The notes beneath the pieces are model-generated. The model was not told the origin of the DNA. It did no database searches and saw only the letters and a list, made by a program, of their open reading frames with translations. This document shows positions 23,351-30,402 of a DNA stretch of 33,984 nucleotides, one piece after another. Position 1 is the stretch's first letter, and each line of letters begins with the position of its first letter. A program made the position numbers and the translations under genes. The stretch comes from Candidatus Enterenecus merdae (lineage in GTDB: Bacteria > Bacillota > Clostridia > Oscillospirales > Oscillospiraceae), in assembly GCA_018716385.1 (NCBI GenBank), contig DVJZ01000033.1, forward strand, positions 1 to 33,984, given 5' to 3'.

Positions 23351-23433
23351 CGGGCCGAGCTTGAAAGCCATGACGGCCGCCGTAAATGGGCCGGCTGTCC
23401 CATGAAAAGATCAAGGAAAAAGGAGAACCACCC

Positions 23434-26229
23434 ATGGATTACAACCAGACCATTCACCTGCCCCAGACCGACTTTCCCATGCGGGCCGGGCTGCCCCGCC
23501 GGGAGCCCGAGCTGCTCAACGGCAAGTGGGAGGTGGAGACCTACCGCAAGCTGATGGAGCGCAACCAGGGCAAGCCCAAGTTCATCCTCCACGACGGCCC
23601 CCCCTACGCCAACGGCCACATCCACATTGGCACCGCCCTGAACAAGATCCTGAAGGACATCATCGTGCGCTATAAGAACATGACCGGCTTCCAGGCCCCC
23701 TATGTCCCCGGCTGGGACACCCACGGCCTGCCCATCGAGTCGGCCATCCTCAAGGACAAGAAGCTCAAGCGGGACGAGCTGACCGACGCCCAGTTCCGGG
23801 ACAAGTGCAAGGAGTTTGCCCTGAACTTTGTGGACATCCAGCGCGCCGAGTTCCAGCGCCTGGGGGTCATCGGCGACTGGGACAATCCCTATCTCACCCT
23901 GAAGCCGGAGTTTGAGGCCAAGCAGATCGAGATCTTCGGCAAGATGGCGGAAAAGGGCTATATCTACAAGGGGATGAAGCCGGTGTACTGGTGCCCCCAC
24001 GACCAGACCGCCCTGGCCGAGGCGGAGATCGAATACGCCGACGACCCCTGCACCACCCTGTTCGTCAAGTTCCCCATCCGGGACGACCTGGGCAAGCTGG
24101 GCGGCTATGCAGACCTGTCCAAGACCTTCTTCGTGATCTGGACTACCACCCCTTGGACCATCCCGGGCAATCTGGCCATCTGCGTCAACCCCGACTTTGA
24201 CTATGTGCTGCTGCAAGCCCCCAACGGCGAGGCGTATATCCTGGCCCAGGGCCTGGCGGAAAAGGTGTGCAAGGCCGCGGGGCTGGACTACGCCGCCTGC
24301 ACCGTGCTGGCCACCCTGAAGGGCAGCGAGTTTGAGCTGATGGCGGCCCGCCATCCCCTCTTTGACCGGGACTCGGTGATCCTGTGCGGCGAGCACGTCA
24401 CTCTGGAGGCGGGCACCGGCTGCGTCCACACCGCCCCCGGATTCGGCGCGGACGACTTCAACATCTGCCGGGCCTATGACGAGGCGGGCAAGACCAAGCT
24501 GGGTGTGAGCGTGCCGGTCAACGCCAAGGGCGTGATGACCGACGAGCGCTACAACGGCCAGTTCTACGCCAAGGGCAACGACCAGGTGACGGCCGACCTG
24601 GAGGCCGGCGGTTTCCTGCTGGCCAAAGAGCACATCACCCACGCCTATCCCCACTGCTGGCGGTGCAAGCACCCCATCATCTACCGGGCCACCGAACAGT
24701 GGTTCTGCTCGGTGGACGCCATCAAGGCCGCGGCGGTGAAAAGCTGCGACCACATCGCCTGGCACCCGGCCTGGGGCAAGGAGCGCATGACCGCCATGAT
24801 CTCCGAGCGCAACGACTGGTGCATTTCCCGCCAGCGCAAGTGGGGGGTGCCCATCCCCATCTTCTACTGCGAACAGTGCGGCTCGGACATCGTCACCCCC
24901 GAGACCATCCGTCGGGTGTCCGACCTGTTCCGGCAGCACGGCTCCAACATCTGGTTTGAAAAGACCGCCGACGAGCTGGTCCCGGAGGGGCTGGCCTGTC
25001 CCCACTGCGGCCACACCCACTTTTCCAAGGAAGGGGACATCATGGACGTGTGGTTCGACTCCGGCTCCACCCACGCCGCCGTGTTGGACGAGCGGGACGA
25101 GCTGGCCTTCCCCGCCGACGTGTACCTGGAGGGGGGCGACCAGTACCGGGGCTGGTTCCAGTCCTCTATGCTCACCGCCATCGCCGCCAAGGGGGCGGCC
25201 CCGTACCGGCAGATCATCACCCACGGCTGGACGGTAGATGGGGAGGGCAAGGCCATGCACAAATCCCTGGGCAACGCCGTCTCCCCGGACGAGGTCATCA
25301 AGGACTACGGCGCGGATATGCTCCGGCTGTGGGTGTCCTCCGCCGACTACACCCAGGATATGCGTATTTCCCCGGAAATCCTCAAGCAGCTCAGCCAGGC
25401 CTATCTGAAGATTCGCAATACCGCCCGGTATATGCTGGGCAACCTGGCGGGCTTTGACCCGGATCGTCCCGTGGCCGTGGCCGAGCTGGAGGCGCTGGAC
25501 CGCTTTGCCCTGGCCAGCTTCAACGACCTGGTCAAGACCTGCCGGGAGGCCTATGAGCGCTACGAGTTCCACGCCGTCTACCGGGCTGTCTACAACTTCT
25601 GCGTCACCGACCTGTCCAATTTCTACCTGGACATCATCAAGGACCGGCTGTACTGCGGGGACGATGCGGGCCGGGCCAGCGCCCAGACCGCCCTGTTCCT
25701 CATTCTGGACGGCATGACCCGGCTGCTGGCTCCCATCCTGGCCTTCACCAGCCAGGAGATCTGGGCGGCCATGCCCCACGCCGCCGGGGACGATGGAGCG
25801 TGCGTGCTGTTCAACGACATCCCTGACTACCGCTCTGAGCTGGCCCTGTCCGACGAGGAGCTGTACCGTTGGGGTGTGCTGGTGTCCCTGCGAGACGCGG
25901 TGAACAAGGCCCTGGAGAACGCCCGGGCCGCCGGGGTGTTCAAGAAGGCCCAGGACACCGAGCTGACCATCTCCGTAGCCGAGGAGAAGGATGCCGATTT
26001 CCTGGCCGGGGCCGACCTGGCCACGCTGTGCATCGTGTCCAAGGTCACGGTCACCACCCAGGCCATTGAGGGGGAGCGGGCGGAGGACTGCCTGGTGCCC
26101 TGCATCATTGCCGTCAAGCCGTCCCAAGCGCCCAAGTGCCCCCGCTGCTGGAACCATGACGAGCACATTGGCGCTTCTGGGCACCACATGGAGCTATGCG
26201 ACCGGTGCGCCGCGGTGCTGGGGGAGTAG
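23434..26229 (+). CDS. ileS: Isoleucyl-tRNA synthetase
   Basis: A 931-residue class I isoleucyl-tRNA synthetase. The HIGH-type motif is PPYANGHIHIGTALNK, with HIGT at 64-67; the KMSKS-type motif is MHKSLGN near residue 608. Both are variants seen in related clostridial enzymes. WTTTPWTIPGN and the segment with GCVHTAPGFGADD mark the CP1 editing domain, and WFDSGSTHAAV the active site. The C-terminal zinc finger is CPRCW and LCDRCAAVLGE. ATG at 23434 follows AAAAAGGAGAACCACCC. A long antisense frame is spurious. Regulated by the upstream T-box. Its last 33 bases before the stop are repeated 191 bases downstream. Confidence 0.97.
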   Translation: MDYNQTIHLPQTDFPMRAGLPRREPELLNGKWEVETYRKLMERNQGKPKFILHDGPPYANGHIHIGTALNKILKDIIVRYKNMTGFQAPYVPGWDTHGLPIESAILKDKKLKRDELTDAQFRDKCKEFALNFVDIQRAEFQRLGVIGDWDNPYLTLKPEFEAKQIEIFGKMAEKGYIYKGMKPVYWCPHDQTALAEAEIEYADDPCTTLFVKFPIRDDLGKLGGYADLSKTFFVIWTTTPWTIPGNLAICVNPDFDYVLLQAPNGEAYILAQGLAEKVCKAAGLDYAACTVLATLKGSEFELMAARHPLFDRDSVILCGEHVTLEAGTGCVHTAPGFGADDFNICRAYDEAGKTKLGVSVPVNAKGVMTDERYNGQFYAKGNDQVTADLEAGGFLLAKEHITHAYPHCWRCKHPIIYRATEQWFCSVDAIKAAAVKSCDHIAWHPAWGKERMTAMISERNDWCISRQRKWGVPIPIFYCEQCGSDIVTPETIRRVSDLFRQHGSNIWFEKTADELVPEGLACPHCGHTHFSKEGDIMDVWFDSGSTHAAVLDERDELAFPADVYLEGGDQYRGWFQSSMLTAIAAKGAAPYRQIITHGWTVDGEGKAMHKSLGNAVSPDEVIKDYGADMLRLWVSSADYTQDMRISPEILKQLSQAYLKIRNTARYMLGNLAGFDPDRPVAVAELEALDRFALASFNDLVKTCREAYERYEFHAVYRAVYNFCVTDLSNFYLDIIKDRLYCGDDAGRASAQTALFLILDGMTRLLAPILAFTSQEIWAAMPHAAGDDGACVLFNDIPDYRSELALSDEELYRWGVLVSLRDAVNKALENARAAGVFKKAQDTELTISVAEEKDADFLAGADLATLCIVSKVTVTTQAIEGERAEDCLVPCIIAVKPSQAPKCPRCWNHDEHIGASGHHMELCDRCAAVLGE
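26193..26225 (+). repeat. Direct repeat, copy 1, at the 3' end of ileS
   Basis: 33 bases covering the last codons of ileS, up to the GAG of the GAG-TAG end. Repeated without change at 26384-26416. Confidence 0.9.
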
Positions 26230-26383
26230 GCCGTTTCGCATCGCTCGGCGGGGCCCCGCAGCGCGGGGCGCGCGAGAGCGCGTACAAGCATGTTTGCCGC
26301 AGGCAAAAATCTTGGCGCAGGCGCAATTCACTTGCGCCGAGCAGAGGAAAAAAGGGGTCCCCACGGGGCTTGCCCCGTGGGGC
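26226..26383. repeat. Multi-hairpin intergenic element C
   Basis: Hairpins in the same order as the element after mnmG: TTTGCC-GCA-GGCAAA (26293-26307), GGCGCAA-TTCAC-TTGCGCC (26320-26338), and an 11-bp stem CCCCACGGGGC (26359-26369) with GCCCCGTGGGG (26372-26382). The linker between the last two is CGAGCAGAGGAAAAAAGGGG. An extra GC-rich hairpin-prone part lies at 26250-26285. No gene. Confidence 0.78.
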
Positions 26384-26416
26384 GCTATGCGACCGGTGCG
26401 CCGCGGTGCTGGGGGA
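26384..26416 (+). repeat. Direct repeat, copy 2, of the ileS 3' end
   Basis: An exact 33-base copy of the end of ileS. In the matching frame it reads LCDRCAAVLGE and goes on to SSKMP and a stop (26433-26435), so it may be the original end of the gene. Confidence 0.88.
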
Positions 26417-26443
26417 ATCGTCGAAAATGCCCTAAAAAGCATA

Positions 26444-26475
26444 AAAACCAGCGCCCTCCAGGGCGCTGGTTTTTT
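26444..26475. terminator. Bidirectional terminator between ileS and the serpin gene
   Basis: CCAGCGCCC (26448-26456) and GGGCGCTGG (26461-26469) with loop TCCA, preceded by AAAAA and followed by TTTTTT. Serves both convergent genes. Confidence 0.92.
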
Positions 26476-26533: not shown

Positions 26534-28015
26534 TTACACCTGGTTCACCACGCCCACGAACAAAAGCTGTCCCGTCTGGCTGGTGATGGCGAACAGGAAG
26601 GGCCGGTCCAGCACAAAGTCGATCTCATCCCCCAGAGGGGCTCCTTCGGCCGCATAGATTGTGGTGAAGGCTGCCGCCTGGCAGCCCTCCTCGTCCACCT
26701 TTACCCGGGCGGCCTGGGTGGCCTGACTGACATAGGCGTCCGCGCCTTCCCCCAACATGGGGGTGAAGTCGGCCCGGCCGGCGTCAAACACGTCGGTGAC
26801 CCCCAGCTGTTTTAGCCCGGGGACCAGATCGGTTTGGGCGGACACGTCAAACTTGGGCATGGACAGGTTGACCTGGAAGGATTGCCGGTTCTCCCACTCC
26901 CAGCCTGCCATGAGAAACTCGGTGAGCTGGCTTCCCGCCAGCAGTTCCTCCGGGGCGGTTCCCTCGTCCGGGAGGATGAGCCACATCTCCCCGCCGTTCC
27001 GGAAGGGCTTGGCCACGGCGGAGAAGCCCTCCCCCCAGAAGTAGGAGCCAACCTCGCTCTGGTTCATGAAGTCTGTCTCCACGTCTCCGCCGGCGGCGGT
27101 GTGGAAGGTACGGGGGGCGGTGGCGCTCTTGTCAAACTCGTCAGACCAGCTGGCCTGAAAGTAAATGGTAGAGGCCAGGGCCAGCAGGGTTTCCGGCCTT
27201 GTCTTGACGTTTTGGGCGTACTCCTCCAGCAAGCCTCCGGTCTGCTCGTTGAGCCAGTCCTGGAGGGCCTGGTTCAGCGCATCCGAGCCCATCTCCCCCT
27301 GGTAGGAGGAGGCGTAGTAGATGTCCGCCAGGGTATTCAGGGCATCCTGGTTGTAGGAAAGCCCTTTATCCAGCCAGACGGAATTGGCCAGGAGACTGGT
27401 GGTCTGCCCGTCGTCCCGGTAGTTGGCGTTCCACAGGTTGGCGGCTTGGGCGCGCAGGGCCTCTATGCTGTCCACCCCCAGCAGGTTCAGCAGCTGCGCC
27501 CGGCTGTCCCCATCGGTGGTCTCCGCCAGCATGGCCAGGGCCAGGTAGAGGTTCAGGGGGGAATAGACCGCGTTTTCTCCCCCGTTGTCCCCCAAAAACT
27601 GGGCCATGGTGGCGGCGTAGTAGTCCGCCATGCTCTCGTTGCCCACCCTCAGCGCCTGACGGGCCTGGTTTTCCGCCCACCAGCTGTCATAGGCGGCCTG
27701 ATCCACCTCCCCGGTGACGGGGTCGACATCAGGATAGGGCATCCGATGGGGATACTCCGCCTGGACGATGGCGCCCAGGGGCTGAGCCATCAGACCGCCC
27801 GGCTGCGCGGATGCGGCTGGGCTGGATTGTCCGGCCAGGGGGCTGCCCCCCGGCCAGAGCACTGCCCCAACGGCAATGGCCAGGACCAGCCCCGCGGCGA
27901 CAGCGCCCCACCAGGCGGGATGCCGCCGGCGGGCCGGACGGGTGGCGCGGATTACTTGCCGCTTTAACGACTCCGGGACATGGATGCCCTCATTGGCTTT
28001 TTGGTAGCGATTCAC
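26534..28015 (-). CDS. Membrane-anchored serpin with anti-sigma-like N-terminus
   Basis: A 493-residue protein. Residues 1-33 are a basic cytosolic segment (IHVPESLKRQVIRA), 35-54 a membrane helix, 55-85 a Ser/Pro/Gly linker, and about 120-493 a full serpin domain. Serpin signs are NAVYSPLNLYLALAML, the hinge EEGCQAAAFTT (from residue 442) with Gly at P15 and small residues at P12-P10 as in inhibitory serpins, and the end signature DRPFLFAI with LLFVGVV. The GTG at 28015 overlaps the ECF sigma stop by four bases (GTGA), with AAGGAGGAGA before it; the longer frame crosses the sigma gene and is not real. Anti-sigma function is inferred from the coupling and topology. Confidence 0.88.
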   Translation of the reverse strand: MNRYQKANEGIHVPESLKRQVIRATRPARRRHPAWWGAVAAGLVLAIAVGAVLWPGGSPLAGQSSPAASAQPGGLMAQPLGAIVQAEYPHRMPYPDVDPVTGEVDQAAYDSWWAENQARQALRVGNESMADYYAATMAQFLGDNGGENAVYSPLNLYLALAMLAETTDGDSRAQLLNLLGVDSIEALRAQAANLWNANYRDDGQTTSLLANSVWLDKGLSYNQDALNTLADIYYASSYQGEMGSDALNQALQDWLNEQTGGLLEEYAQNVKTRPETLLALASTIYFQASWSDEFDKSATAPRTFHTAAGGDVETDFMNQSEVGSYFWGEGFSAVAKPFRNGGEMWLILPDEGTAPEELLAGSQLTEFLMAGWEWENRQSFQVNLSMPKFDVSAQTDLVPGLKQLGVTDVFDAGRADFTPMLGEGADAYVSQATQAARVKVDEEGCQAAAFTTIYAAEGAPLGDEIDFVLDRPFLFAITSQTGQLLFVGVVNQV

Positions 28016-28494
28016 AGTTGAATCTCCTCCTTTAACGCTTCCCGCAGGAGGGCCCGGCCCCGGGACAGCTGGGACTTGATGGTTCCCTCCGTGGCGTTCA
28101 GGTCGGCGGCGATCTCCGCCACGCTCAGGCCCTCGAAATAGAACAGATGGATCACCGTCCGGTACTTTTCCGGCAGGGCCAGCACCGCGCCGTACACCTC
28201 GCGGTACTCGTCCTCCACCCCGATCTGGGCGGCGGTCTCCAGGGGCACCGTCCGGCGCCGCCAGGGAGAGGTGAGCAAGCTCTTTGCCCGGTTGACCGTG
28301 CAGCGGATGAGCCATGCTTTGCGGTGCTCGTCCTGGAAAAAGGCAGCCCGATCCTCCTGACGGAAATAGCGCAGAAAGACCTCCTGGAACACGTCTTCCG
28401 CGTCGCTGACATTGGCCGTGCGCACCAGCGCCAGCCGCCACACCAGGTCGCCCCAGCGCTCCACCGCCTGTGTTTTCCGGTCCGGATCGCCCAT
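28012..28494 (-). CDS. ECF-type RNA polymerase sigma factor
   Basis: A 160-residue sigma-70 family protein with region 2 (SDAEDVFQEVFLRYFRQ, then KAWLIRCTVNRAKSLLTSPWRR) and region 4 (LPEKYRTVIHLFYFEGLSVAEIAADLNATEGTIKSQLSRGRALLREAL), and no regions 1 or 3, so an ECF sigma. GGGAGGGAGAACT precedes the ATG. It is translationally coupled to the serpin gene, the usual order for a sigma and its anti-sigma. A candidate self-controlled promoter lies just upstream. Target genes may include the serpin operon itself; others are unknown. Confidence 0.93.
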   Translation of the reverse strand: MGDPDRKTQAVERWGDLVWRLALVRTANVSDAEDVFQEVFLRYFRQEDRAAFFQDEHRKAWLIRCTVNRAKSLLTSPWRRRTVPLETAAQIGVEDEYREVYGAVLALPEKYRTVIHLFYFEGLSVAEIAADLNATEGTIKSQLSRGRALLREALKEEIQL

Positions 28495-28515
28495 AGTTCT
28501 CCCTCCCTTCTTTTG

Positions 28516-28544
28516 TAATACCCTGCAACAGGGGAAACGGTTGC
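28516..28544 (-). promoter_or_regulatory. Candidate ECF-type promoter of the sigma-serpin operon
   Basis: On the minus strand, GCAACC (28544-28539) and GTATTA (28521-28516) are 17 bases apart, 22 bases before the sigma start codon. An AAC-type -35 box is typical of ECF promoters. The -10 element is not assigned by experiment, so autoregulation is an inference. Confidence 0.5.
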
Positions 28545-28619: not shown

Positions 28620-28649
28620 TTGACAGAACCCCGTCCTGTCTGCTATGCT
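28620..28649 (+). promoter_or_regulatory. Promoter of the lipoprotein gene
   Basis: TTGACA (28620-28625) and TATGCT (28644-28649), spacer 18. The -10 lies wholly inside the spacer of a perfect inverted repeat. Confidence 0.65.

Positions 28650-28754: not shown

Positions 28755-30402
<1,648 letters not shown>

What the first reader, a model, noticed from the sequence alone, without database searches (positions are those of the whole stretch)
26534..28544. An ECF sigma factor coupled to a transmembrane serpin: a possible protease-sensing anti-sigma system
The sigma gene and serpin gene overlap by GTGA. The serpin has a short basic cytosolic N-terminus, one membrane helix, and the whole serpin domain outside, the topology of many anti-sigma factors, and no separate anti-sigma is encoded. 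A serpin changes shape massively when a protease cuts its reactive loop. So an outside protease could be trapped and the change passed through the membrane to free the sigma factor. Sigma-anti-sigma coupling is established knowledge; the use of a serpin as the sensor is my inference.
Basis: partly seen in the sequence, partly recalled or inferred. Interest (0 to 1): 0.78.

Follow-up and report, generated by a model that had tools for sequence, protein, structure and literature searches.

The report
Membrane serpin as anti-sigma factor
In gut bacteria related to Oscillospiraceae, a gene switch (an ECF sigma factor) is encoded directly before a membrane protein whose inner tail looks like a sigma-holding module and whose outer part is a serpin, a protease trap, so the cell may sense outside proteases with the same protein that inhibits them.

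Summary
An ECF sigma gene (28494-28012, -) overlaps by GTGA a one-helix membrane protein (28015-26534, -): a 33-residue inner tail, then a serpin outside. The pairing is not chance: 38 of 55 serpin places in the genus (29 of 42 genomes) have an ECF sigma directly before them. Seven more are second serpins in such operons, and seven are lipoprotein serpins lying third, after a sigma and a separate anti-sigma-like gene. Of the 80 nearest sigma loci, 50 are followed by a serpin, 29 by other membrane proteins, many with the same tail, and 1 is cut. A second tail with its own sigma group carries serpins (8 of 30, a biased sample) or other outer domains (22 of 30). The tail goes with the sigma; the serpin domain has moved between tails. 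This marks the tail as the anti-sigma module and the serpin as one of several swappable outer parts. Hinge and sigma promoter are conserved, the bait region varies. Closest analogues: RsiV (lysozyme receptor and inhibitor) and Tt-TolB. That a protease caught by the serpin releases sigma is inferred, not shown. Four text searches of the held library found no paper on such a pair.

The parts
28517..28544 (-). Candidate autoregulated ECF promoter GCAAC-N16-GGGTATT
   Evidence: Upstream regions of type A sigma genes: 24 of 30 have GCAAC-N16-GGGT. Only exact match in own genome, 0 for the reversed pattern.
28012..28494 (-). ECF sigma factor, 160 aa (regions 2 and 4)
26534..28015 (-). Membrane-anchored serpin / proposed anti-sigma factor, 493 aa, GTG start overlapping the sigma stop
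27947..28015 (-). Inner anti-sigma module (residues 1-23; motif R-Y-x-x-A-N-x-G-I-H-x-P)
   Evidence: Pairwise identity 0.73 in residues 2-20 against 0.63 in the serpin core and 0.32 in the linker, 29 genus sequences. Same module on non-serpin partners. Two short helices in the model, pLDDT about 50.
27854..27913 (-). Transmembrane helix (about residues 35-54)
   Evidence: Hydropathy; alignment A1
27806..27814 (-). Candidate signal-peptidase-like A-x-A (residues 68-70), hypothesis only
   Evidence: Sequence; an A-x-A in the juxtamembrane motif window of 39 of 61 sigma-linked but also 10 of 46 unlinked serpins
26543..27601 (-). Serpin domain (residues 139-491)
   Evidence: Pfam; solved-structure hits; AlphaFold model against PDB
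26618..26692 (-). Hinge and reactive centre loop (about residues 442-466, P17 E442, P15 G444, P14 C445)
   Evidence: hinge statistics; loop 455-467 under pLDDT 50 in the model
26443..26474 (-). Intrinsic-terminator-like hairpin after the operon

Best explanation
The two genes are a sigma/anti-sigma pair. The first 20-odd residues of the serpin protein hold the ECF sigma at the inner face of the membrane, one helix crosses it, and the serpin outside is the sensor. A protease that attacks the reactive loop is trapped, or at least cuts the loop. The serpin then snaps into its relaxed form, and this exposes the stretch next to the membrane to site-1 cleavage (signal peptidase by analogy with RsiV). 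The site-2 protease RasP finishes the cut, the sigma is freed, and it transcribes its own operon from the GCAAC-N16-GGGTATT promoter, making more serpin. Shown by sequence: both gene products, overlap, topology, conserved pairing, module sharing, conserved hinge, conserved promoter motif. Inferred: binding of sigma by the tail, the protease as signal, conformational transmission, the proteolytic cascade, autoregulation.
For: Pairing: 38 of 55 genus serpin places have sigma directly before them, 31 of these 38 with a -4 overlap. Sigma's view: 50 of 80 nearest sigma loci are followed by a serpin, 29 by non-serpin membrane proteins, 1 partner is cut by a contig end. A profile of the type A tails finds the tail in 6 of 29 non-serpin partners at E<=0.01 (15 of 29 at E<=1), against 0 (1) of 580 shuffles, 0 of 30 type B tails and 0 of 46 unlinked serpins. 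Type B sigmas: 30 of 30 listed loci have a partner at -4 with what by eye is the same tail, 8 of them serpins (biased, see Tried and rejected). The sigma tree splits A and B at 100/99, while in the serpin-domain tree A, B and unlinked serpins interleave, starred branches forcing at least 4, 7 and 10 changes (quick tree). A hinge pattern with Gly at P15 and small residues at P12-P10 fits 29 of 31 type A and 28 of 30 type B serpins, and each of these 57 has Glu at P17; identity is 0.75 in the hinge against 0.44 just after it. Machinery present: one strong M50 site-2 protease (4.0e-59) and one signal peptidase I (9.7e-37). Serpin as output: second serpins in 7 genus operons, lipoprotein serpins third in 7 more. 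Precedents, passages read: Tt-TolB's 39-residue N-terminus binds its sigma (PMC3397946); RsiV is both receptor and inhibitor of lysozyme (PMC5014341).
Against: No binding was measured or modelled; a complex could not be predicted with the tools. The tail helices have low model confidence. The A-x-A also occurs in 10 of 46 unlinked serpins. The DUF4179 region that masks the cut site in RsiV is not found in the window protein and only below cut-off in a type B protein (E 0.087). P14 is Cys or Val and P9 mostly aromatic, so inhibition is uncertain; L071 and L073 lack P15 Gly. In 7 genus genomes the serpin is not the anti-sigma but a lipoprotein behind a separate anti-sigma-like gene. One serpin-linked sigma (L358) falls outside the type A clade. 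The own-genome partner at L160 looks similar in its tail by eye, but the tail profile does not find it.
Confidence: 0.62

Rival explanations
1. The protein is the anti-sigma factor, but the serpin is not driven by a protease: its metastable fold reports a ligand, heat, pH or misfolding (latent or polymer transition), or binds a small molecule as non-inhibitory serpins do.
For: Unusual hinge residues (P14 Cys/Val, P9 Tyr/Phe). Other outer domains on related tails include beta-propellers (3 of 10 scanned), which are not protease baits.
Against: P17 Glu and the Gly/Ala hinge are kept while the bait residues vary, the pattern expected for protease targets.
Confidence: 0.15
2. The protein is the anti-sigma factor and proteases are the signal, but they act by simply cutting the long linker (site-1 cleavage by the outside protease itself); the serpin is only a protective or concentrating domain.
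For: The linker is long and variable (identity 0.32) and could be cut by many proteases.
Against: A serpin that traps proteases would oppose such cutting; hinge conservation argues for a working switch.
Confidence: 0.15
3. The serpin is only an effector made under the sigma; the inner tail is a plain anchor and the sigma is held by something else.
For: Serpin is an output elsewhere in the genus: 7 second serpins without the tail and 7 lipoprotein serpins placed third, after sigma and a separate anti-sigma-like gene.
Against: In the window no other anti-sigma gene lies in the operon. The tail is among the most conserved parts (0.73), recurs on non-serpin partners, and its type follows the sigma clade.
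Confidence: 0.09

Closest known systems
RsiV / SigV (Bacillus subtilis, Clostridioides difficile)
   Same: ECF sigma plus membrane anti-sigma; the outer part is both receptor and inhibitor of a host enzyme; autoregulated operon; signal peptidase and RasP (PMC5014341, PMC6066255 passages).
   Different: Lysozyme, not proteases; the outer part is not a serpin; the window protein shows no DUF4179 match.
Tt-TolB / Tt-RpoE1 (Thermoanaerobacter tengcongensis)
   Same: Short N-terminus of 39 residues, one helix at 39-61, large outer domain; tail binds the sigma; promoter tGTTAC-N16-CGTC with the same spacing (PMC3397946 passages).
   Different: TolB-like outer domain; other promoter sequence.
RsgI-like anti-sigma factors of Clostridium thermocellum
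   Same: Membrane anti-sigma factors with outer sensor domains (PMC3990059 passages).
   Different: SigI partners and polysaccharide sensing; the passages list serpins only as separate cellulosome proteins.
Gut bacterial serpins (siropins, bifidobacterial serpin)
   Same: Serpin fold, gut habitat; bifidobacterial serpin transcription responds to proteases (PMC8201313 passage).
   Different: The passages read mention no tail and no sigma partner.

Membership tests
Serpin superfamily (PF00079) | Serpin domain over the curated cut-off | tested here: met
   6.2e-69, 233.4 bits against cut-off 27, profile positions 13-368 of 370; fold match to PDB serpins
Inhibitory serpins | Hinge with P17 Glu, P15 Gly, small residues P12-P9 (consensus recalled) | tested here: inconclusive
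   P17, P15, P12-P10 fit; P14 Cys and P9 Phe do not
Inhibitory serpins | Covalent trapping of a protease | not testable with these tools
   needs biochemistry
ECF sigma factors | Regions 2 and 4 in a short protein | tested here: met
   Pfam r2 and r4_2; NCBIfam TIGR02937 65.9 against 42.9 bits
Transmembrane ECF anti-sigma factors (functional class) | Gene directly after the sigma, cytosolic N-terminal module, one helix, outer domain | tested here: met
Transmembrane ECF anti-sigma factors (functional class) | The module binds and inhibits the sigma | not testable with these tools
   only indirect evidence
Class I (ASDI / zinc) anti-sigma factors | Anti-sigma domain of about 100 residues, often zinc-binding | tested here: not met
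   Tail is about 33 residues without Cys; no anti-sigma Pfam family. The class I census dropped domains under 50 residues (PMC7406223 passages)
RsiV family | DUF4179 and RsiV outer domain | tested here: not met
   one search shows Serpin only

The most novel reading that the evidence does not exclude
A serpin used as a transmembrane receptor: the one-way stressed-to-relaxed transition, set off by a protease that is destroyed in the act, is passed through the membrane to release a sigma factor. Oscillospirales and some other Clostridia would have done this repeatedly by joining serpin domains to at least two unrelated anti-sigma tails.
Probability: 0.5. Interest if true: 0.9.

Novelty: new variant of a known kind. 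Interest (0 to 1): 0.76.

Why it matters
Why some bacteria keep serpins is stated as open in the serpin phylogeny paper (PMC8233489, section 15). Here many gut serpins come wired to a sigma factor, which gives a concrete and testable role: sensing and blocking host or microbial proteases with one protein, as RsiV does for lysozyme. It also exposes a set of very short anti-sigma tails with many different outer domains.

Tried and rejected
Chance neighbourhood: rejected by the counts. Membership in the RsiV or class I families: rejected. Signal-peptidase A-x-A as a specific mark: weak, since it also occurs in unlinked serpins. A larger regulon in the window's own genome: not seen, one exact site and one further one-mismatch site. 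A shared promoter for type B sigmas: the simple word count found none (best word pair in 4 of 30). ECF group: not settled, since of the 25 NCBIfam rows shown only the general ECF model passed its cut-off.

Counts to read with care. The family sample (L107-L158) was picked by me from middle and lower-scoring matches with longer frames, and the order and class picks (L233-L272) from matches reaching the tail or with long frames, so their fractions are biased; the genus places and the 80 sigma loci were taken as returned. The type B profile A4 was made from serpin-linked sigmas, and at least 7 of the 8 serpin loci among its 30 are places already fetched for their serpins, so 8 of 30 is too high as an estimate; their tails were matched by eye. 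Module A was called by a pattern; B means sigma-linked and not A. The hinge pattern itself demands Gly at P15. By a hydropathy rule, of the 107 serpins that could be typed in genus and family sample, 61 of 67 with at least 20 residues before the helix have sigma directly before them and 0 of 40 others do; 3 of 110 could not be typed. The six exceptions include second copies in tandem at L121 and L147 and lipoproteins with an over-long start call (sequences). Many loci are the same genomes as the genus set, so those counts overlap. In the serpin tree some rows labelled unlinked are tandem second copies or lack upstream sequence (L254), which inflates the changes; it is a quick tree without bootstrap in which long branches meet. 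The sigma tree's bootstrap had not fully settled.

Full report
What is there. On the minus strand the window holds an ECF sigma gene (28494-28012, 160 aa) and a second gene (28015-26534, 493 aa) whose GTG start overlaps the sigma stop as GTGA. Pfam finds Sigma70 regions 2 and 4 in the first and a serpin domain, residues 139-491, in the second. The serpin protein begins with about 33 residues rich in Arg and Lys, then one hydrophobic stretch from residue 33 on, then a linker and the serpin. A terminator-like hairpin of 14 pairs follows at 26474-26443, and ileS (23386-26229, +) converges beyond it. A lipoprotein-like gene without a Pfam match starts at 28755 in the other direction. So the unit is just sigma plus serpin. 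The genome (1.80 Mb, 50 contigs, 99% complete) has this one serpin match.

Is the pairing more than chance? Serpins were found in 37 of 42 genomes of the genus, at 55 places, and I fetched all 55. Thirty-eight have an ECF sigma directly before the serpin, 31 with the same four-base overlap, in 29 genomes. The other 17 are: 7 second serpins behind a paired one; 7 lipoprotein serpins (L060-L066) that lie third, after a sigma and a separate membrane protein with a type B-like tail; one lipoprotein serpin without a sigma within 3.5 kb (L067); one at a contig end (L105); and one inner fragment (L106). So 52 of 55 lie in an operon-like row with an ECF sigma. Eight genomes have a serpin but no direct pair: seven hold those third-gene lipoproteins, and in the eighth (G028) both the serpin (L105) and a type A sigma (L291) end at contig ends, so a pair may have been split by assembly. 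In a chosen family sample 23 of 55 serpins are directly paired; of the 32 that are not, only L111, L121 and L147 have a sigma within 3.5 kb upstream, and for some little upstream sequence was held. In the order, 20 of 21 serpins in L233-L252, regions that I chose and of which 18 of 20 come from other families, have a sigma before them; among 20 further regions, mostly from the class, two do, L253 and L257.

Looking from the sigma side. A scan of named genomes with the sigma alignment kept the best 80 of 309 loci. The next gene is a serpin in 50 of 80; one partner (L328) is cut by the contig end and begins with the same tail; 29 are not serpins. The 29 belong to sigmas at most 56% identical to the query, the 50 to sigmas 51-86% identical. 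A profile made from the type A tails finds the tail in 6 of the 29 non-serpin partners at E<=0.01 and in 15 at E<=1, against 0 and 1 of 580 shuffled tails, and none of 30 type B tails or 46 unlinked serpins. Of 10 non-serpin partners scanned, 3 carry a Pfam beta-propeller (PF09826), 1 has weak DUF4179 and DUF5643 matches, 6 nothing. The window's own genome has two further ECF genes followed by one-helix proteins without a serpin (L160, L161); the L160 tail looks similar by eye, but the tail profile does not find it.

A second tail. Many paired serpins carry another tail (consensus MKxxDLxxxIGxVDDxxVxxA) behind another ECF group. For such sigmas in 61 family genomes the 30 loci given are all followed at -4 by a protein with, by eye, this tail; 8 are serpins and 22 have other outer domains, a sample biased towards serpins because the query was made from serpin-linked sigmas. 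A sigma tree of 137 rows separates the two groups at 100/99. The type A serpin-linked sigmas form one clade of 56 rows (100/99) among non-serpin ones, except L358 (Clostridium sp. Cult2), which stands outside it. In a quick tree of 158 serpin domains, type A, type B and unlinked serpins are mixed, with well-supported branches forcing at least 4, 7 and 10 changes of label. So the tail goes with the sigma, and the serpin has been moved between tails. This is what an anti-sigma module plus exchangeable outer part predicts and what a mere membrane anchor does not.

The serpin itself. Its nearest solved relatives by sequence include conserpin (7e-40), plant serpin ZX and tengpin. The model (31 sequences, mean pLDDT 78.6) matches serpin structures, best by target-normalised score to loop-inserted forms (cleaved CBG 2vdy 0.89, latent tengpin 2pef 0.87; native tengpin 2pee 0.80), which says the fold can take up its loop but not which state it is in. 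Among 29 genus type A sequences the tail (0.73) and the hinge (0.75) are more conserved than the core (0.63), while the loop after the hinge (0.44) and the linker (0.32) vary. A hinge pattern that demands Gly at P15 and small residues at P12-P10 fits 29 of 31 type A, 28 of 30 type B and 39 of 46 unlinked serpins; P17 is Glu in all 57 paired ones that fit. P14 is mostly Cys in type A (23 of 29) and P9 is aromatic in most. I recall that inhibitory serpins prefer Thr or Ser at P14 and small residues at P9, so inhibition is likely but not certain.

Promoter and output. In the genus it occurs 44 times in 30 of 42 genomes, against 6 for the reversed pattern. Of 13 sites that I looked at beyond the known pairs, 1 precedes a type A sigma (L291), 5 (L277, L284, L287, L296, L300) lie at one conserved place next to genes that I read as trmL and pgk and before lipoprotein genes, and 7 look like chance or lie in genes. 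DUF4358 is over its cut-off in 3 of the 4 lipoproteins scanned from these places. The simplest output is therefore the operon itself, more serpin, with an envelope lipoprotein added in some relatives.

How it most likely works. The tail holds sigma; the serpin is hit by a protease; the change of shape, or the trapped protease, opens the membrane-near part to cutting; RasP completes it; sigma is freed and makes more serpin. The genome has a strong M50 protease and one signal peptidase I. RsiV works by this kind of cascade and is both receptor and inhibitor of lysozyme (PMC5014341 and PMC6066255, passages read). Tt-TolB shows that a 39-residue tail suffices to bind an ECF sigma (PMC3397946, passages). 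The protease step, the transmission and the cascade are inference. The relatives with a lipoprotein serpin behind a separate anti-sigma-like gene show that a serpin can also be a plain output of such a sigma.

Known or new. Text searches for serpin with ECF sigma factor and anti-sigma (0 papers), bacterial serpin with sigma factor and operon, serpin with sigma factor and Clostridia (8 papers), and serpin with anti-sigma (13 papers, 12 listed) showed no paper on such a pair. I read passages of two of these, where serpins are separate proteins, and otherwise judged from titles and abstract starts. The serpin phylogeny paper notes membrane-anchored prokaryotic serpins, and the word sigma does not occur in its held text (PMC8233489). 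The large ECF reclassification paper was not held, so a mention there cannot be excluded. I rate it a new variant of a known kind.

Noticed in passing
L060-L066: In 7 genus genomes a lipoprotein serpin is the third gene after an ECF sigma and a separate one-helix protein of about 295 aa with a type B-like tail, an alternative wiring of serpin to sigma.
   Followed up: partly
window 26190-26225 and 26381-26416: A 36-base stretch of the 3' end of ileS is repeated 191 bases downstream at 97% identity.
   Followed up: no
L277, L284, L287, L296, L300: The sigma-type promoter motif recurs at one conserved place before lipoprotein genes (DUF4358 in 3 of 4 scanned) in relatives, a likely second target of the sigma.
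   Followed up: partly
L388-L417: Type B ECF sigmas of the family are followed at -4 by membrane proteins with a similar short tail; 22 of 30 have outer domains other than serpins.
   Followed up: partly
L250, L251, L252: A third kind of tail (motif LY-x-x-TAHI-x-E-x-LID-x-x-IG) on serpins behind more distant ECF sigmas.
   Followed up: no
L160 and L161 (own genome, contigs C35 and C40): Two further ECF plus membrane-protein pairs of the same layout without serpins; L160's partner has no Pfam match at E<=1.
   Followed up: partly
L071, L073, L087, L097, L098, L100, L101: A second serpin without the tail follows the sigma-serpin pair in the same direction, as if regulator and effector serpins shared an operon.
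   Followed up: no
window 26683-26681 (residue 445): Cysteine at hinge position P14 in 23 of 29 type A serpins that fit the hinge pattern, also in 12 of 39 unlinked ones; unusual and unexplained.
   Followed up: no
window 28755-29276 (+): Divergent lipoprotein-like gene without a Pfam match, with a sigma-70-like promoter match at 28620-28649.
   Followed up: no
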